Shown here piece by piece: positions 39,410 through 50,319 of a DNA stretch of 64,000 nt. The notes beneath the pieces were generated by a model that had not been told where the DNA came from, did not search any database, and was given only the letters and a program-made list of their open reading frames with translations. The position numbers and the translations under genes are program-made. This stretch comes from Hoplostethus atlanticus (lineage: Eukaryota; Chordata; Actinopteri; Trachichthyiformes; Trachichthyidae). The stretch spans positions 3,395,001 through 3,459,000 of the forward strand of contig JAXDDX010000003.1 of the NCBI GenBank assembly GCA_034670405.1, read 5' to 3'. The stretch's first letter is position 1. Each line of letters begins with the position of its first letter.

Positions 39410-42400
39410 TCAGAGTCTGTGTTCAAGGCAGGCGCCTGGGTCCGGCAAACTTGGGTGTTCGTCTGGAGGAGTTGACTCTTTGCTTTTCCGTACTCTCCAT
39501 ATGGTGAATACTCCCCGCAGTGAAAATATAATGGCGATGACTGAGAAGTAGCTGGCATATATGGTGAACTGCAAAAGAGGATGTATATAAGTGATGAGCT
39601 GACCTCCAGAAGACCTGTTGGCCATTTCCTGAGCAACCAACTCACCTGAGGGATGATGGGCAAGCCGAGCCCTCCGCTGTCAACCACAATGGAGGTGATG
39701 ATCGTCTGTAGGACCAAAGCTCCAAAGTTGTTCATCCCAAAGACCAGTGCATATCTTTCCATTGACAGGTCAGCTGCAATTTGGTACCTAAGAGAAGTGT
39801 TGAGTTGTTTTGTTTGTTTTTTTCAAGGTGAGGAAGGGAGGGATGTAATCATGAAGTGCTGTTCTGTAATTTCAAACACTTAAAATTTGTTTGATTTACA
39901 CTTATGACCCCTAAATTTGGCCTGCAATAAAAATATCAGGTCTGGATCATAAATGGTAAAATGTTTGTATTTGTAAATGTAGTCTTTTATATCGCATATG
40001 AAACTTACATGGCTATTGTAATCAGCAGCATGTACAGGCACTTGAAGATGACGTAGCCAGTGTAGCAGACCCAGATGTTGGCTGTGAAGGTAATGAGGAA
40101 GAGTGCTGCTGCCCCCAGCCCAGAGAACCCACCCAGGGCCAACTCTCCCCACTGTTGCCAGTTCACCTGAGTGAAGCCTATACCATAGGCTGTCGCTGCA
40201 CCTGCAAACCACACAGTTTTAGACTTTTTCAGTCATTTGAATTATCAGTTAGAAAATGGGCTAATGTTTTGGTAGGCATCATTTCCTCTTAGTGGTTTAG
40301 TGTATTTTCAATGTCGGGACAGAATAATGTGACAATGTGAAGACAATATTTGCACATCAGAAATATAGCCCAAATTACTTCAACTACTTCAGTTAGCGAA
40401 AACATTCTTTTTTTTTCACTTTTGTAAAAGTAAACATAATCCCAATTTTATGGGGGACAGCCCTTCCTAGTCCTATTTGATGTTATTTACCGAACAGGTT
40501 GGACACAGCCTCCACTCCTCCGTTGTAGACGCTGAAGTTCTGGGAAGGCTGCACATGTTCCCACAGCACCTGCAGGATGTATTTTAGATATCTTAGGTGT
40601 TTTAGATTCTCCTGATTGTCTCCCCTTGTTATTTCCTGCTGCTTTATGTGGGCCTGAACGTATTGAATATCTGATAATAAGAGCAACCTTTGACCACAAC
40701 TTGACTTTAGAAGCAATTTAATCTGAGATCAGCCCTCCTACGTCTAATATTTGTCTAAATATAATGCACAGAGGCCCTGATCACTTTATTTGTACAAAGA
40801 GAGTGGAAAAACATGCTAAGCTTAAAGCTGCACTAGGGCAACTTCTTTGGGGAACACACTTTGGGCCCCAAATGGCAGCAGGAGATGAGCACTTTTTTTA
40901 TTTTATTTTGAAGGATTGAAGTTTGAAGTTGGAGGATGTCAATAGCCACAAATTTTGAAAGGTGATATCTGTAACTAAATGCATTCTTAGTGACTGATGG
41001 AGGTGATAAAGTGGTTCAGCCATCGTCGGTGAATCTGCCTTTCTCTGCCTCTTTTGGAGACACTTTTGGATTGGTCATTTCCTGTGTGTGGGTGTGGAGT
41101 AGATTTCCTGTCAGAGGCTATACCATACATCAGAATTTAGGTAAATCAGACGAATCTACGGTGTAGATTAGAGGAGATGCTACACTCTTCTCTGCTGCGG
41201 TCCTACTTGATTGTGACTGAAAAGACAGGTTGATCTTGACAGGGAAATCTTGTCTAGGTTTAATTCTAGCTTTTTTTGTTTATGTTGCCCCCATGACTGA
41301 CCTGTACATAGTTGACAGTCTGGTTGTAGCCACAGGTGGCCAGTGCCCACCACACTGACCAATAGAGCAGCTGTCGGGAGGAATAGCACTGGAGGAAGTC
41401 CCTCCACAGCCGGAGGAGAACCTGGCCACAGCTCTCTGCACCCACAGACTCCTCAGGGTCCTCAGCCATGGGCCCCTCCCCTTTCCTCCCTGTTCCTGCT
41501 CCCTCACATGTTCCTCCTCTTTCCTCTGCCTTTTCATTTATTCCTCCCATTTCTTCCAGGGATGTCTTTGATCTGTTTTTTTGGTCTGTTGCGTCAGCAC
41601 CCCCATCTACTTGCTTCCTTGTGCCCTCTGTTGCCTTTGTCTGTTCATCTGTACGTGTGCGGTGGAAGAACATGCTCCGCCGTGGCATTGGCAGGAGGCA
41701 GGAAGTGAGGAGAGCGATGGAGGTGAGGACCAGAGTAAATACCAGGATGTAGTAATAGGACATGAGGTTGAAGCTGACCAGCAGCTGGCCCAGCACAGAG
41801 CCCACTGTGTACCCCAGGAGCTGCACACTGCGGCAGTAAGAAGTGGCCTGGTGTCACAGGGTGACGTGTGTGTGTGTGTGTGTGTGCCTGCCTGCCTGCT
41901 GAGCTGATTGACGGACACACCTCCCTCCGTAATTTCAGCGTGTGGGTAATTAGGTCACAGGTGTTGGTGGTTTGGGTTTTCCCTGCCCTTTTATTTAAGC
42001 AGCAGCAGAGGGGCAGGCTGGAAGGAACGGTGAGCAAGCAACGATCGGGAAACGCTGTTGGAGGAGCACTGGTCGGACGGCTGTCACAGTCGAGAGGGCA
42101 TCTTGTCCAAAGTTCCCGGGAGCAGCGCGAGAGAAGTGTTCCTGACCGGGGACGTGCACAGCCACTGTCAGAGCCACTGCCGGGACCGAAGGAGCTGCTG
42201 CTACGCAGAGGACCGGGTCGTCATCACGCCCGAGGAGGCTACAGATACGCACGGTGCGTGAGGGGGAAGTCTTTGATGAAAGTGGAGGGGTGGGGACGCG
42301 TTCCACCCTTCCTCTAGATAAGTACCCCTCCTGATCGATAGCCGATTCTCATAAAAAATACACTGGAGAAGGCGTCACCTAGTTGGCGTTGTTAATGCTG

Positions 42401-44247
42401 CTGTTGAATGATTTTTATACAATTATCCTGTTAAATAATTATAACGTTGGCATCCCGCCAGCAGTCATTCTATATGGACAAACTTCAGTAATGTTGGACT
42501 GGGCTTTATTATTTCATTTGAGTTGAAGTGGATTCATTTGGAAGTGGATTCATTTGAATTAATTTGGTGTTCCCTGTGTTGGACTTTTAGTTTGCTGTGT
42601 TTATATGTTGATTTATATTATATTTTTGATTTCTTTTCCATCCAAAACTTATTGTTGTTTTTGTTCTAAAATAAGTTATTACAACTAAAGACTGCTAGGT
42701 AGGTTACCCTGACGGATATCTTGTGTCTTCTCAAGCGACTGGCAGCCAGCTGAACTGGGACCTGCTGTCCAAGGACTTACCTGTTCTTACCATTTGGAAA
42801 CCAGACTGTTGAACTCTTTTAGATTGATCCTCCGGAGTATCCCTTTATCCATTGATTTTAGAACTATTGTAATAAAGAAGTGTTTTATATATTTAATTCT
42901 TGTCTGGTCGTGTTGTTCAGTGTAGCTGCTCCCCAACAGAAAGGAAAAAGTGTGGTTTTACACAGTCACTCCACCCGGTGACACTTACGGTACTTCTCCA
43001 GATCTACCACGCTGTAATAAATAAAATCTATGAATATATGCCACTTGTTGCACACTATTAGTGCAAAATGTAACACAATACCATGACAGTTTTCAGTAAG
43101 GACGGCCTCACTTTAGTGTTTGGGGAGTTGTTAAGCTACAAGTATTTGAACTCTAAACTACATACATTTTTGGTATTGTAATTTCATTGAAACTACCAGT
43201 TTAAAGGGGAATTAAACCTGGGCTCTATTTGTACAAATTCATCATTTATACCGCAAAATCGGTACAAAAAGTTTTGCCAAACAACACTCTGTGGTGTTGT
43301 TCTCGACCAAGAATTATAACATAAACATTTGTTAAAGTTGTAATTAATTGAATACACATTCAGAGTAGTTTCCCCTCCCCAGTGGGATCCAAAGCCTGAC
43401 CCCTGGCAGTACTAGTGTGTTGCTCTACCCGCTGTGCTACATGACCTGTAGATGTAGGAGAAGTAGGCCACCTCGCTGGCCGTCACCACGCCGTAGAAGA
43501 ACTGCATGGCCTGCATGGCTGCCACGCTTTGCATCCAGAGCAGCATTGCTGTGGTGATGAAGAGGTTGACACACTGGAACACCACCACAGGCTTGTAGCG
43601 CAGCCAGTCAGTGAGCAGAAACACTGGCACTAGCACACAGAGGTAGGAGTACGTCCACACCGGGAAAATCTCATTGTTTACCTGAAATCAAGGAAACGCT
43701 AGTATATAGACATCGGATCTGAATTAGACATAGACATAGATCCTTTGCGTGTAGGACAAACAGTATTGCTTGGTAACAATAAATCAGAAGGTTTTATCAC
43801 TTTTATCGCTCAGGTAATAAAGTGATTTTCTTTTTTTGCTTTGATTAATTGGGCTTATTTTATAAGTTTGCTTATTGTTAAAAAAAAAAAAAAGGATACA
43901 GAAAACTTCCATTGCCATTTGGTTTAATCAGTGGACAAAATGTATTTGTACATTCAACATTTTTTGGTGACTTGTGTCAATGCTGCAAAACTAACAAGGG
44001 AAACTAAAATACAGTCAGACAGTCGACAGTCAACAGTCAGAACCTTAATTCTATACATGGTTTGCTAAAGTAATAGGAAAATCTGTCTTTGCTTTTATAC
44101 CTGTTGTGTTGTCAGGTTCTTGTCCGGTCCTGTCAGGAACGGGATTAGGAAGGGCTCCAGGGGTTTAACTGTGCTGAAGAAGCCATAGATGCACAGCAGA
44201 GTAGTGGGATACCCCCAGCCCGCCTTCCACTTCCTCACTGCCTCCAT
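39410..44247 (-). CDS. slc19a3: Thiamine transporter 2-like, tandem copy 1
   Basis: SLC19 carriers are 12-helix plasma-membrane transporters of the MFS fold; SLC19A3 takes up thiamine. Exons in gene order: 44247-44101, 43681-43446, 43011-42989 (or to 42975), 41847-41302, 40569-40491, 40201-40009, 39787-39646, 39568-39410, giving about 512 residues. Markers: [20 protein letters not shown] and [16 protein letters not shown] (helix 1), [113 protein letters not shown]. The central loop is long and hydrophilic (about 80 residues). The intron between exons 3 and 4 is a 1.13-kb element; the strong donor there (GTAAGT at 42988) breaks the phase by two bases, whereas a GTGGAG donor 14 bases on keeps it. 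slc19a2 is less likely given neighbours agfg1 and daw1. Confidence 0.88.
41851..42984. mobile_element. 1.13-kb element with inverted terminal repeats occupying an slc19a3 intron; class unresolved (solo-LTR-like or DNA element)
   Basis: The outer 13 bases are GTGTCACAGGGTG and, inverted from the other end, GTGTCACCGGGTG. Read as TG...CA ends (41852-42983) it could be a solitary LTR fossil. On the plus strand it has a TATA-like TTATTTAAG at 41991, a 67-codon frame (42058-42261) and AATAAA at 42871-42876, consistent with LTR-type signals but also with a DNA element. A GT-rich run follows the left repeat. No matching target duplication is apparent. It looks moderately old and carries no transposase or viral protein gene. 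Confidence 0.55.
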
Positions 44248-44675
44248 CTTCACACAGCCACTGACAATAGTATCGCCTGCCTCTGAGCTGCTGAAGCTCT
44301 TTTACTCCGTCTTGGTTGTTCTGTCTGTCTCGGGTTTGTGGGAAACACCTGAGTTTGTCTGTAAATGTTGAGCTTGGTTTGTCAATGAACAACCGGCTCA
44401 AAGGGCACAACAACCTAGGTCACGTTCACCTGAGATACATGTGTCATAAATAACACATGAGGCAGATAGAGGAATTTCACAGGACTTTAACGTGCCTTCT
44501 TAATCAGTTGAAGACTCCAGTTTTATTATTTCATTTGAACTTTGCCATTGCATTTTTAGGCAGTAAAGATGGGCAATTTTGCAGGCATTTATGAGCAGTA
44601 TTGTACAGTATTGTAGTATTGTACTGCTGACATCACTTTTCAGTATCAGTAAGACTAACAGTTTGTTAACGCTGG
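44248..44675 (-). promoter_or_regulatory. Spacer between tandem slc19a3 genes
   Basis: Only 428 bp separate the copy 2 stop from the copy 1 start. TTTATT at 44522-44527 gives an AATAAA for copy 2 on the minus strand, so the copy 1 promoter must lie within roughly 250 bp or overlap the copy 2 3'UTR. Confidence 0.5.
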
Positions 44676-46829
44676 TCAGAAGTGGTGAGCAGAGATCACC
44701 TCCACGCCGGGCTCGTGCTCTCGGTCCTTGGCCTCTGTCTGCTCGGGGTAGCAACGATGCACACAGACTGTGTACATCCCTCGAATCAGGAAGAGCACCG
44801 AAATGGCGGCATAGTAGCTGCCATAGATGATGAACTGCAAAGAGAGAGCCTTCTGTCACCCTCTGTAACTGCAGTATGATTTAGATTATGTTGATCAGTC
44901 TACATCAGACGTGTCCACATGCAAAAGTAACTGTCCACCACCAGGTGTCACTCTTTGTCCTTGTGCTTCGATGTTGGTAGTCCATACTGCTTATATTTTT
45001 GCAGCTAAGTGAGCATTTTAGTGTTGAATCTCAGTGACATGCCATTAAAACAATACATTTATAGAATGTTAGTGCTGGGTGAAAAAACAAATAATAATAA
45101 TTTTCATCTTCAAGCTCGAAACGTACCGAGTGTGCAATGTTACATACAAGTAAATCAAACCTCCCACTCAGAGTTTCCCATCAAAGCTCATTGTTGGATT
45201 CTACATGAATATGCTGATAGTTTTTTGTGTACATCCTCTGGATCACTAGAAAGCACTACTCAGTATTACATACCTGTGTCACAATGTCCAGTCCTAGTGC
45301 AGTTTCATCAACAACAATGGCTGTTAAAACGGTCTGCAGTAAAAGTGCCGCAAAAGTGTTGATTCCAAATGTCAAAGCGTAGCATTCCATGGAGAGATTG
45401 GATGCGATCTGAAATCTAAAAAGGGCAAACGACATATCATTTTTGAGACACATTTTTAGTCACCTTGTTCCAAATACTCATTCATGTGAACTGGACCCTC
45501 TGCAAGTGTCTTAGATTCTTATTAGCGATCTGAAACCAGCTTACGTCCTTTATCAGCAGCTTGTTATACAGATCACTGCAGGGTCTTCCAAACAACGGGG
45601 GACATGGTGGGACAGCAGTGCATCTTATTACATTCTTCATGCACTGCTGTTCCTCCGCCCATAGGAACTGTCTGGAAGATCCTGCAGTACCAATGCAGAA
45701 TGATAGATTCAGGTTGGGGGTCTTCAACAGTGCCCACTGCTGTATGGCTGCTGGCCAAACTTACGTTGTAATGGTGATTAGGAGCATGTAGGAGGCTTTG
45801 AATATCACATAGCCCGCATAGCACGCCCAGATGCTGCCGGTGAGCCCCATCAGAAACACGGCACCCGCTCCCACAGCTGAGAACAATCCTAGAGCCAGCT
45901 CCCCCCACACGGCCCAGGCCACCTTGACGTGACCTACAGAGAAGGCCGCTACGGCACCTGGCCCGGGGAAGGGGCAAACGCAGCGATTAACCTGTTGTTC
46001 AGGGTGGACAACACCTCGAGTGTGCCAGTGCATCCTTATTGTCTTCCCAGGGACAAATTGTGTTTCTACAATCAGAGTGGAGGACGTGGCTGCTCTTTGA
46101 TTTTTTGCTCCTCTCCACAGCCCCTGTTTATCACGGTGAACCACTTTCACCCCTCTGTTAGAACCCAGCTACCAGAAACAATCAGAGAAACCATTACCCT
46201 CCAACTCTATCTCCTTAATTGAATCAATTACTCCTCTCCTTCTCATGCTGAGCCGGCTTGGACCTAAGCCAACAGGACCATGGTACTACTATTCCCTTTC
46301 CCAATCAAGCATTATCCATTATCCATTCCCTTTCCCCCCGAGCATTATCCATTCAATCAGTTATTATCCCCATATAAACAGGATTGGGGCGGGGCTGTTT
46401 TCTTGTAATTGCAGATTTTTACAGGTCTATCTGTAAATCATTTTATCTAGGTGCTATCTCCTCCTCTGTGTCACTCAGGCTCCTGAAGCCTTCTGTGAAT
46501 CCTCTGTTGAGATTACCATCTCTGAAAGAGACTGTTGCTCTCTGTTACTGAGCGTTCTTCTGTGCACATTGGTATTCTGATGTTATTTGGAACACTCAAG
46601 TCTTCAGTTGGCTTGTCTAAATACCACATCCTGTTTGTGATAACCCAGATAGGCTTGCATCCCAGTTATGAAAGCCCTGGTTTTTGTGGTCTGTGGAATT
46701 CCTGTTTCCGTGGTGATATTTCTGCAATATTCTATTTATTTATGTATACAGTGACATGAACAGGATATGCGGATGTATCTCAAATATAACCTTAACCTTA
46801 GGGATATGAGGCCACATCAGAAAACAGAA

Positions 46830-46863
<34 letters not shown>

Positions 46864-48949
46864 CTCTCTCTCTCTCTCTCTCTTTCATTTCCACTCAAGC
46901 ACAACTAGAATGACCTGTCTTACCTACAAGAGTGCAGACAGCCTCTACCCCTCCATTGTACACGGATGATGTGGCAGATGGTTCAATATGGTCCCACATC
47001 AGCTGGCTGTAGTTGAAGACCTGCCCATAGCCAGCTGTGGCCAGAGCCCACCACAGGGACCAGTAGATTAAATGCCTGGATGATGATGATGAGGATTAGT
47101 ACTCCTATGTATAAAAAATATTACTATTCCTAACAACAATAGTTTTGAGCTAAAATAACTAAAAACTAAAATATTATTAGTTGTATTTAGAGCAGAAGAT
47201 CATAAAGCATCACATGAACTATACCAATGAATTATCCTATTGGACTTATTTGCTGCAGTTCAATACATGGAAATTATAACTTATTATTATATATTAGAAC
47301 AAATTTAACAACATACAGAGACACAAAGACAAATGAAAGATGTGTATGCTGAATAGATCTGTGTTGCTTATCGTGATCCGTGTCGATAAAAAACAAAAGA
47401 TTGATCATTACCTGGAAGAGTAGGACTCTCTGAAGCTTCTCCAGAGTAGCGGGCCAGCACGGGCCACATTATCCCTGCTGCACCAGCCGCCACTTCCATC
47501 GCACTCCATTTTCTCTGTCCCTGAGCCAGCTTCATCCTCGCCCTTCGCTGCTTTCGCAGGCTCACCCACCACCTCTGCCCCCTCCTGCTGGGACTGGGAG
47601 CCCACAGTTGCAGCCCGTCTCCCTTTGAAGAACATGCCACTTTGCGGCATGGGCAGCCAGAAGGAGATCAGAAAAGCCACACTCACTATCCCCAGAGTGA
47701 TGGCATTGACGTAGAAGTAGTCCATCCCTGCTGGAGTAAAGACTTCATCAGATCTCGCTCCAGGTTCGATGACGCATGGTTCAATACAGGTCTCTTGGCA
47801 GCTAATTGTGTTAAGAATTTTTTTATCATTATCTCTCTGAAGGAGTATTCTGGTCTTCAGATATGGCTTAACACAAAATATAATGGGAGTTTCTTTTTAT
47901 TGCTTCAGCGTTGATTGTATATATCCAAAACGTTACCTGCCAGGGAGATGAGCAGTTGGCCCAGGGTGGCCCCAAACGTGTACCCAGCCAGCATGGCACT
48001 ACGCAAGTAACTGGTGGCTCGCTGGTACTTCTCGACTGGAATCATGCTGTAGATGTAGGAAAAGTAGGCCACCTCTGTGGAAGTCACCACGGCATAGTTG
48101 ACCTGTTGGCGGGACAGGATAGACCAATTTAGTGATAGTAGCCAATGGTAAAGCCCCTCCCATCCATAATGCAAGAGGCTGTAGGGTTTTCTCAGCAATT
48201 CATCTTGGGGGTGGTGCAACAACGCAGCAGTAGAGTAATATCTACTGCTTTAATAATGGTTATGTCTTTTGATAAACCTTTAAGCCAAGATATTACAATC
48301 AAAACACAATATTATGAATGTTTCTGAATATAGCATTACATCAGAAACGGACATCATTTACTATCCAACTGTTTCTGATCAATAATAGTTTTTTGTGTTT
48401 TCATGGACCTGAAGGAACGTCATGGCGGGCAGGCCCGGGGCAAAGCAGAGCAGGACATAGTTGGTGACCAAGAAGAGCCCCTGTAGGATGATGAGGGGCT
48501 TGTACCTCAGGAAGTCAGTCAGCAAGAAGACAGGGAAGAGGATGGCCAGGTAGGAGTATGTCCAGATGGGGAACAGGTAGTTAGTCACCTGTGGGAAAAG
48601 ACAAAGCTCATGAGTAAGTGAGACACCAAGAGGTAGCAGAGACTGTGTCAAGACAGGCTGGTCTGAGATGAGCACCTCTAATGAAAAATACTTGCTGAAT
48701 GCAGGCCCTAATTCTCTGTGCATGTGTGTGTGTGTGTCTGTGTGCATGCATGTATATGATGCATGTGTACGTGCAAATGTGTACGTGTCTGTCCATCTTA
48801 CCACTTCTTCAGAGATGTTTTTGTGTGGTCCAATGAGGTAAGGTGTGAGGAAGGGCTCTGCTACTCTAGTTAGCAAAAAAACCATAGAGTGACAGGACTG
48901 CAGTGGGATAAACCCAACCGGAGGACCTCAGCTTGGCCCAGCAGCACAT
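44676..48949 (-). CDS. slc19a3: Thiamine transporter 2-like, tandem copy 2 (frame interrupted in exon 1)
   Basis: Eight exons in gene order: 48949-48802, 48588-48409, 48102-47937, 47727-47412, 47075-46924, 45957-45765, 45415-45274, 44834-44676, about 484 residues. Markers: [173 protein letters not shown]. All phases fit except exon 1, which is one base too long: a seven-A run (plus 48875-48881) shifts frame between LSLYG and EPFLTPYL. A start at 48885 would avoid the shift but lose most of helix 1. Could be an assembly indel, an allele or an inactivated copy. The exon 2 donor GTCCAT is weak. Three introns sit at positions absent from copy 1. Confidence 0.85.
46832..46884. repeat. (TC)n microsatellite
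   Basis: TC dinucleotide tract with one TTG interruption, in the intron after slc19a3 copy 2 exon 5. Confidence 0.95.
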
Positions 48950-50319
48950 GCTTTTACCCCAGCAGAATTCCCTGGAGATCGTCTTCGGTTGTGAATTCCC
49001 GTGGTGCCGTCTGAGTGCCGACCTTTCTTTAAGCTGTTAATCATCAGTAGCTCCCCGGCAGTAGCTTGCAGATAAGTATATTTATAAAACCTTTATGATC
49101 TGCGTGGCCTTCATGAGCAAAAGACTTTGACCTCTTAGGAAATGGGAGGATCGCTGAGGGATAATAGTAATAATGAGAAGCAATAAATAAATGATAATAG
49201 ATAAAGCAACAGCTATCATTTCAAGACTTCTACCATAAATAGGTAGAAAAGGTATAGTGCAGAGTAGGGTAAATTGAACCTTGCAGTAAGATGATCCACT
49301 CCCTATATCATGGAAACATAATCATTAAATTAGCCCTATAGATAGGTGTAATTAATCAATTATCATTCATTAATCAAGTCAGTTATATAGCAGTTAAATG
49401 AACGGGTATAAGAATCTAGCACTTAAGCCCAACAACTAAACTATAATTTTACTTTATCCGCCATTTGTTGCCTATATAAGGTACAATCCAAACCCAAGTT
49501 GTCAGGGTATTTTGGATTCCTTAAGTGATTTTAGTGTCTTCCAGAAAACGGTGAAACAATTAAGAAAACCCGAGAGGTTAAAATCTTTACTTGAGAAGTT
49601 AAACGCCATATTAGTGATTATTCTCAAAGTTAAGACCATTCTCTAGATCTATTTCACAGGATGTTGGTACATATTAGGTCACACCTGTTTTTCAAAATCA
49701 ACTTATTGGTGACGCTTAAACATTCAAAATAGTATACAATATATTTTCAATTGTATATACTGAATATAATCCAATATTGATGATGTTAATGTGTGACAAC
49801 AAACAATGCTTTGAGACAGTAAACACCCTATATTATTAATAATATTAAAATCTTTTAATCCCTAAAGCATACTCCCAGTGTTGCATTCCACACATACAAA
49901 TAGCAGGTTATATCATTGATGAAAGGCACACAGGCAAGATCTACAAATGATGTTACATTATAGGAGACTGACCCTAATTTTTTCATGCTACAACAAGGGA
50001 AGGCTTCATTCAAGGGTGTAATTATCAACACGAGAGGCACATAGACATGCATTCTTGCATTTCTTATATGAGTGTAAGATTCTATTTTCATTGTGTCACT
50101 GAAATGCAATTTTGTTCCTCTTCGTAGCTCATTTGAAGTTGAAAATCGAATATTTCTCCGTTTATCTCTTCTAGCCGCCCAACTTCTCCGGCAGGTGGTT
50201 GTGTTTATGTCCGTACTACGCATGCGTGGTGAGTGCACGAGAATGTCAGCCACGAGCCAGTGTCGGCATAGCAACGGTTTGTTGATAGAGGATGTAAATT
50301 CTACTGACTACGAGGCAAA
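48950..50319. promoter_or_regulatory. Divergent region between slc19a3 copy 2 and daw1
   Basis: About 1.4 kb, AT-rich in the middle. A decayed relative of the 35591-36492 element begins near 49262 (GTAAATTGAACCTTGCAG then TAAGATGATCCAC). The daw1-proximal 150 bp is GC-richer and holds an X-box-like site. No gene in between; no ccl20-like exon was recognised. Confidence 0.55.
50262..50275. promoter_or_regulatory. X-box-like RFX site upstream of daw1
   Basis: GTCGGCATAGCAAC has a perfect right half AGCAAC and a left half GTCGGC with one mismatch to GTNRCC, 2-nt spacer. It lies 45 bp before the daw1 start codon, suiting a cilium gene. Confidence 0.55.

What the first reader, a model, noticed from the sequence alone, without database searches (positions are those of the whole stretch)
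41851..42984. An slc19a3 intron that is almost exactly one inverted-repeat element
Seen: in copy 1 the coding sequence breaks in the middle of LEKY...RATSY, where tandem copy 2 is continuous ([10 protein letters not shown]). The intervening 1.13 kb starts and ends with 13-nt inverted repeats, the acceptor CCAG abuts the element and the donor lies within 4 bases of its other end. This looks like an intron created by insertion into an exon, with splice sites supplied by or beside the element termini. The strongest donor (GTAAGT) leaves the reading frame two bases out, while a weaker GT 14 bases inside keeps it, so the host gene may be either newly adapted or damaged.
Basis: partly seen in the sequence, partly recalled or inferred. 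Interest (0 to 1): 0.75.

Follow-up and report, generated by a model that had tools for sequence, protein, structure and literature searches.

The report
Solo LTR interrupting slc19a3 exon
A recently inserted retrotransposon remnant (one long terminal repeat) splits a protein-coding exon of one copy of a fish thiamine-transporter gene; it most likely damages that copy, and nothing seen here shows that it works as a new intron.

Summary
The interruption is real. The element is window 41852-42983, 1,132 bp, TG...CA: a solo LTR of a young Ty3/Gypsy retrotransposon, not a terminal-inverted-repeat transposon. The genome holds 40 aligned LTR copies including this one, and 60 matches of its 3' end. 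Most two-LTR copies have LTRs without a substitution between them and exact 4-bp target duplications. The LTR lies antisense inside one exon of slc19a3 copy 1. Human SLC19A3 and four paralogs in this genome read straight through the site (YQR motif), and removing the LTR plus 4 bp restores an open frame. Our LTR has three private substitutions in 1,132, so it is young. The rest of the gene is open.

Intron function is not supported. If retained, the LTR brings a stop after 14 codons. Junction donor GTAAGT with acceptor CCAG shifts the frame. The likeliest effect is inactivation or strong reduction of copy 1. The junction is odd: its 4-bp flanks (TAAG and CCAG in gene sense) agree at 2 of 4 bases. 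No transcript or empty allele could be examined.

The parts
41852..42983 (+). Solo LTR (1,132 bp, TG...CA) of a young Ty3/Gypsy retrotransposon, antisense to the host gene
   Evidence: 40 aligned copies incl. this one, 97-100% identical; 60 matches of its 3' end with up to 2 mismatches, 0 for the pattern read backwards; GGTTTGGGGGGG before 15 of 15 downstream LTRs and TTTTGGCGTAG after 18 of 19 upstream LTRs; protease, RNase H and integrase domains in pieces next to LTRs
41848..41851 (-). Downstream junction CCAG (gene sense): candidate acceptor and one side of the 4-bp target duplication
42984..42988 (-). Upstream junction GTAAG (gene sense): forms donor GTAAGT with the first LTR base; other side of the imperfect target duplication (TAAG vs CCAG)
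42973..42974 (-). Weak GT (CGG|GTGGAG) inside the LTR that keeps the frame with CCAG|GCC and would add three residues net (YRKCHRATSY)
   Evidence: 2.7 bits
42779..42780 (-). Strongest donor-like site in the antisense LTR, CAG|GTAAGT; lies beyond the stop of the retained frame
   Evidence: 12.7 bits; stop after 14 codons of the retained frame
42989..43011 (-). 23-bp exon remnant upstream of the LTR in gene sense (CGTGGTAGATCTGGAGAAGTACC)
41302..41847 (-). Remainder of the interrupted exon ([12 protein letters not shown]...)
43446..43681 (-). slc19a3 copy 1, exon 2
44101..44247 (-). slc19a3 copy 1, exon 1 (start codon)
39412..40569 (-). slc19a3 copy 1, last four exons: 40491-40569, 40009-40201, 39646-39787, 39412-39568, all open
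   Evidence: best solved-structure match thiamine transporter 2, E 3.9e-152

Best explanation
A Ty3/Gypsy retrotransposon of a recently active family integrated, antisense, into a single coding exon of slc19a3 copy 1 (shown from sequence). Recombination between its two LTRs then left a solo LTR (inferred, the usual route). The LTR now separates the codons for LEKY and ATSY. Unspliced transcripts reach a stop after 14 codons of this exon (shown by translation). The junction donor with the junction acceptor shifts the frame, and the strongest donors inside the LTR lie beyond that stop (predicted). The allele is therefore most likely a recent loss-of-function or strongly hypomorphic insertion. 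The intact remaining exons reflect youth rather than retained function (inferred). Because the LTR reads toward the gene's 5' end, its promoter could also start an antisense transcript across exons 1-3 (inferred, untested).
For: Element identity. Youth: 14 of 15 aligned two-LTR copies have no substitution between their LTRs, and our LTR has 3 substitutions in 1,132 bp seen in none of the 39 other aligned copies. Exon insertion: continuous frame in copy 2, three other paralogs and human SLC19A3, and an open frame across the joined flanks. Outcomes: retained 142 aa; GTAAGT + CCAG|GCC 202 aa; skipping the 23-bp remnant 207 aa; weak in-frame pair 512 aa. Chance control for in-frame pairs: 851 of 2,860.
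Against: All other exons and splice sites of copy 1 are open, as for a gene still in use, although at this age decay would not be expected yet. Seventeen donor-acceptor pairs keep a frame of at least 430 residues, including the junction donor with an exonic acceptor at 41804 (493 aa) and an LTR donor at 42969 with the good exonic acceptor at 41827 (507 aa, 7.9-bit acceptor), so some partly working product is conceivable. A junction donor of at least 5.5 bits together with an acceptor of at least 3.8 bits arises in only 34 of 2,860 simulated insertions, so the pair seen here is a mild coincidence. The junction flanks agree at only 2 of 4 bases; at the LTR's private rate two or more changes among 8 flank bases has probability 0.0002, so either integration was imprecise or the flanks changed by another route.
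Confidence: 0.8

Rival explanations
1. The solo LTR is already spliced as a new intron, through the weak in-frame donor or another frame-keeping pair, so copy 1 still makes a nearly normal transporter.
For: Frame-keeping pairs exist, 17 of 420. Junction splice-like sites of this strength occur in only 34 of 2,860 simulated insertions. In notothenioid slc26a2 an element with tgt...aca ends and 4-nt direct repeats is described as having become an intron whose gt-ag lie in the repeats (PMC12357937, section 20 read).
Against: The exon remnant is only 23 bp. Eight pairs rank above it, and each of these also changes or deletes residues.
Confidence: 0.1
2. The LTR is spliced in part of the transcripts but out of frame or with LTR pieces as extra exons, so copy 1 is lost through nonsense-mediated decay.
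For: CAG|GTAAGT at 42780 and acceptors at 42863 and 42017 inside the antisense LTR; gene-sense AATAAA/ATTAAA at 42897, 42510 and 41995.
Against: Consensus scores only; the score tables were recalled, not trained on this genome.
Confidence: 0.35
3. The break is an assembly artefact: a repeat copy misjoined into a continuous exon.
For: The 4-bp flanks do not match exactly, and a search with the downstream exon part found no second allele.
Against: The LTR carries three substitutions seen in no other aligned copy. Both flanks are adjacent parts of one exon with an open frame after removal of 4 bp. Other junctions without an exact 4-bp duplication exist in the family: 6 of 22 events including this one.
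Confidence: 0.04
4. The element is a MITE or other DNA transposon with terminal inverted repeats.
For: Ends agree at 11 of 13 bases when inverted.
Against: The same sequence flanks pol-bearing interiors as paired LTRs with polypurine-tract-like and primer-site-like bases.
Confidence: 0.01

Closest known systems
Solo LTRs of Ty3/Gypsy retrotransposons
   Same: TG...CA ends, near-identical copies, two-LTR relatives with protease, RNase H and integrase
   Different: This one sits inside a coding exon and its 4-bp flanks agree at only 2 of 4 bases
Transposon-derived intron 3 of notothenioid slc26a2, element NTE-1 (PMC12357937; abstract passage, section 20 and other passages seen)
   Same: Fish solute-carrier exon, element beginning tgt and ending aca, 4-nt direct repeats, splice-like bases in the repeats
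   Different: There the intron is shared by five species; here the strong junction pair breaks the frame and the insertion is young. The passages seen do not call NTE-1 an LTR
Introners (PMC9860276; passages seen)
   Same: Mobile element whose splice sites may come from the target duplication
   Different: No sign of repeated intron creation in the 15 sites joined: only this one was recognised as interrupting a host exon; C34 lies in a LINE-like frame and C50 in an ffar4-like intron
Transposon insertion as a route of intron gain (reviewed in PMC3443670; passages seen)
   Same: Possible removal of an exonic insertion by splice sites near its ends
   Different: No transcript evidence here

Membership tests
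Solo LTR of a Ty3/Gypsy retrotransposon | Same sequence found as paired LTRs of full-length elements | tested here: met
   15 aligned two-LTR copies, 14 with no substitution between LTRs
Solo LTR of a Ty3/Gypsy retrotransposon | TG...CA ends, PPT before the 3' LTR, PBS-like site after the 5' LTR | tested here: met
   PPT 15 of 15, PBS-like site 18 of 19, C92 being the exception (PBS and PPT recognised from recall)
Solo LTR of a Ty3/Gypsy retrotransposon | Protease, RNase H and integrase domains of Ty3/Gypsy type | tested here: met
   Pfam gag-asp_proteas, RT_RNaseH(_2), rve, Integrase_H2C2 in separate pieces. Ty3/Gypsy rather than retrovirus rests on these domains, on integrase followed closely by PPT and 3' LTR, and on recall; no tree was built
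Solo LTR of a Ty3/Gypsy retrotransposon | Exact short target-site duplication | tested here: not met
   TAAG / CCAG, 2 of 4; exact 4 bp in 16 of 22 events of the family. This weakens the simple integration history, not the identity of the sequence
Spliceosomal intron | Removed from transcripts | not testable with these tools
   no RNA data
Spliceosomal intron | Good donor and acceptor at the element's ends that preserve the frame | tested here: not met
   the better junction pair shifts the frame and the in-frame pair at the ends is weak (recalled score tables)
Introner | Many introns created by the same element | tested here: inconclusive
   15 joined insertion sites looked at by eye, frames crossing them not searched against any library; only slc19a3 copy 1 recognised inside a host exon; most copies not examined
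DNA transposon / MITE | Terminal inverted repeats without LTR context | tested here: not met

The most novel reading that the evidence does not exclude
One ancestral slc19a3 exon shows intron birth at two stages. An older retroelement (tRNA-SINE-like head at 43445, TACAG on both sides) became the working copy-1-specific intron 43012-43445. A young solo LTR 23 bp downstream is now being spliced by sites at or near its own junctions and may become a second intron.
Probability: 0.08. Interest if true: 0.65.

Novelty: new member of a known kind. Interest (0 to 1): 0.3.

Why it matters
As a damaged gene copy it is an ordinary insertion mutation, useful as a marker of recent retrotransposon activity and possibly of a polymorphic loss of one thiamine-transporter duplicate. 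If transcripts showed that the LTR is removed, it would be a vertebrate case of an LTR caught while becoming an intron. Whether and how inserted elements become introns could then be followed directly in living populations.

Tried and rejected
TIR/MITE reading rejected (paired LTRs). A second exonic copy was suspected at C50 (ffar4/GPR120-like, name from recall, no library search) and rejected: the LTR lies 40 bp after a donor CAG|GTATGG and 59 bp before an acceptor TTCCACAG, so it sits in an intron of about 95 bp (read by eye). The neighbouring intron 43012-43445 was suspected to be a repeated SINE. Its first 120 bases (searched with three exon bases) have one further match, 77% over 70 bp. 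ARAGORN found no tRNA in 41000-45000. Rfam at E up to 1 gave only a sub-threshold mir-297 match in 40000-49000. The tRNA-like motif occurs once in the window. Only a truncated MITE end inside the intron is repetitive. Its origin stays open. Two histories for the junction were weighed. (a) The 4-bp duplication has two mismatches. (b) The duplication is CCAG, from the TAC CAG codons that all four paralogs keep, with GTA added on one side and one codon lost on the other. Neither could be decided without a relative or an empty allele. Promoter scan, structure prediction and fold search were not used. Paper searches on slc19a3 duplicates (10 of 14,593 listed) and on LTRs or solo LTRs as introns (20 of 34, 20 of 223 and 9 of 10 listed) showed no title or abstract start on an LTR-made intron; searches (25 of 77, 20 of 38 listed) led to papers cited.
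Full report
What is there. The window lies in an unnamed 633-Mb genome (G000, contig C3). On its minus strand it holds two tandem slc19a3-like genes. Copy 1 (window 44247 down to 39412) has open exons throughout, and its protein matches human thiamine transporter 2 best among solved structures (E 3.9e-152). Between the codons for LEKY and ATSY lies a 1,132-bp sequence, 41852-42983.

What the element is. The sequence matches 40 loci in the genome, itself included, at 97-100% (the tool scored 40 of 92 candidates). Its last 23 bases occur 60 times with up to two mismatches: 44 exact, 14 with one and 2 with two; the pattern read backwards gave none. Fifteen aligned loci carry two copies in the same orientation, 10 of them 6.12-6.14 kb apart and the others 3.5-6.4 kb (start-to-start). 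In 14 of the 15 the two copies have no substitution between them; C167 has one. In one search, 18 of 19 upstream copies are followed by TTTTGGCGTAG (one with an extra T; C92 is the exception) and 15 of 15 downstream copies are preceded by GGTTTGGGGGGG (one with an extra G). These look like a primer-binding site and a polypurine tract (recalled features). Separate 0.5-1.3-kb translated pieces next to LTRs carry protease, RNase H and integrase domains. The element is therefore a long terminal repeat of a Ty3/Gypsy retrotransposon. Here it stands alone, on the plus strand, antisense to the gene.

How old it is. Three substitutions of our LTR are seen in none of the 39 other aligned copies, that is 3 in 1,132. 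The family is young. I give no date because no rate for this lineage was at hand.

Insertion into an exon. Copy 2 reads [10 protein letters not shown] without a break (TAC CAG CGA GCC). Paralogs on C83, C132 and C81 read YQRVTGY, YQRVTSY and YQRVAGY in one exon, and human SLC19A3 reads YQRVSGY. Removing the LTR and 4 bp gives one open frame of 158 codons across the site.

The junction. I read both flanks of 22 insertion events (16 two-LTR, 6 solo; C352's two tandemly duplicated solo copies counted once). Loci with only one outer flank read (C2, C60, C62, C174, C313) were left out, and others were never fetched. Sixteen of the 22 have an exact 4-bp duplication: 13 of 16 two-LTR events and 3 of 6 solos. 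The six others are C126 (exact over 5 bp), C39 and C78 (one mismatch each), C50 (an extra base), C89 (a 7-bp repeat out of 4-bp register) and ours, TAAG against CCAG in gene sense. At the LTR's private rate, two or more changes in eight flank bases have probability 0.0002. Irregular integration is therefore likelier than later point mutation, and C39 and C78 show that mismatched flanks occur in this family while their LTR pairs are still identical. Alternatively the duplication is CCAG, taken from the TAC CAG codons kept in all four paralogs, with GTA added on one side and one codon lost on the other. This remains open.

Splicing. Scores come from consensus tables that I recalled, so they only rank sites. 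The junction donor ACC|GTAAGT scores 5.6 (the gene's six other donors 3.5-12.1). The junction acceptor scores 3.8 (the six other acceptors 1.9-9.9). Together they give a frameshift and a 202-residue product. Retaining the LTR gives 142 residues, and skipping the 23-bp exon remnant gives 207. The weak donor CGG|GTGGAG with the junction acceptor keeps the frame (512 residues, YRKCHRATSY). The best of them joins a weak LTR donor at 42969 to an exonic acceptor at 41827 (507 residues). The junction donor itself keeps the frame only with an exonic acceptor at 41804, among the pairs printed (493 residues, part of the exon lost). The strongest donor in the antisense LTR is CAG|GTAAGT at 42780, 12.7 bits (all). 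I placed the LTR in silico at every position of seven exon stretches of this gene, ends excepted, in both orientations with a perfect 4-bp duplication (2,860 cases). A junction donor of at least 5.5 with an acceptor of at least 3.8 arose in 34 cases, and an in-frame pair with a summed score of at least 6.5 in 851. The sites seen at the junction are thus mildly unusual, and the in-frame option is not.

Best reading. A recent exonic insertion, now a solo LTR, that most likely inactivates or strongly weakens slc19a3 copy 1. The open remaining exons do not argue for function, because little time has passed. No second allele was found with the downstream exon part (the matching search with the upstream part did not complete). 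No transcript was available.

Against what is known. Solo LTRs in genes (recalled) and transposon-derived introns are known kinds. The closest printed case seen is intron 3 of slc26a2 in notothenioid fish. Its element NTE-1 begins tgt, ends aca, is flanked by 4-nt direct repeats, and the intron's gt-ag lie in those repeats (PMC12357937, section 20). The passages seen do not call NTE-1 an LTR; that resemblance is my inference. Ray-finned fishes gained introns in melanocortin and some other receptors (PMC3151243, passages seen), and introners can recruit splice sites from target duplications (PMC9860276, passages seen).

A neighbouring lead. The 434-bp intron 43012-43445, just upstream of the 23-bp remnant, is also absent from copy 2 and the three other paralogs. 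It begins five bases before a tRNA-like GTAGCACAGCGGGTAGAGCA (43421-43440), holds a truncated end of a common MITE-like repeat, and has TACAG on both sides. Against a SINE origin: the acceptor consensus itself explains CAG, ARAGORN and Rfam saw no tRNA there, and the head has only one distant match in the genome.

Noticed in passing
window 43012-43445 (minus): Copy-1-specific intron absent from four paralogs; tRNA-like head next to the donor, TACAG on both sides, truncated MITE-like end inside; possibly an older element-derived intron, but no tRNA call and only one distant genome match for the head.
   Followed up: partly
window 48875-48881 (minus): slc19a3 copy 2, exon 1: the frame breaks near a run of seven T (YGFFAN*), while the next part ([15 protein letters not shown]) is open in another frame; frameshift or homopolymer error.
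   Followed up: no
window 47700-48420 (minus): Copy 2 has introns of its own (before [11 protein letters not shown] and after LISLAG, read by eye) where C83, C132 and C81 have one long open stretch, so intron turnover in these slc19a3 duplicates looks high.
   Followed up: no
L080 / C50:1220868-1222010: Another solo LTR of the family inside a small intron (about 95 bp without the LTR) of an ffar4/GPR120-like gene (name from recall); the junction has an extra G.
   Followed up: yes
L071/L072, C34:2901027-2908408: A two-LTR copy interrupts a LINE-like reverse-transcriptase reading frame (recognised by eye), i.e. an element nested in another.
   Followed up: no
C352:120805-125182 (L061, L063): Two solo LTRs 3.1 kb apart with identical flanks, that is a tandem duplication that includes one solo LTR.
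   Followed up: no
C92:1318130-1318197 (L090): The 3' LTR end is repeated 45 bp further on, the outer one followed by the matching target duplication TAAC.
   Followed up: no
window 41992, 42871: LTR plus strand: TATTTAA and AATAAA at promoter-like and polyadenylation-like places (roles recalled); it could drive an antisense transcript through slc19a3 exons 1-3.
   Followed up: no
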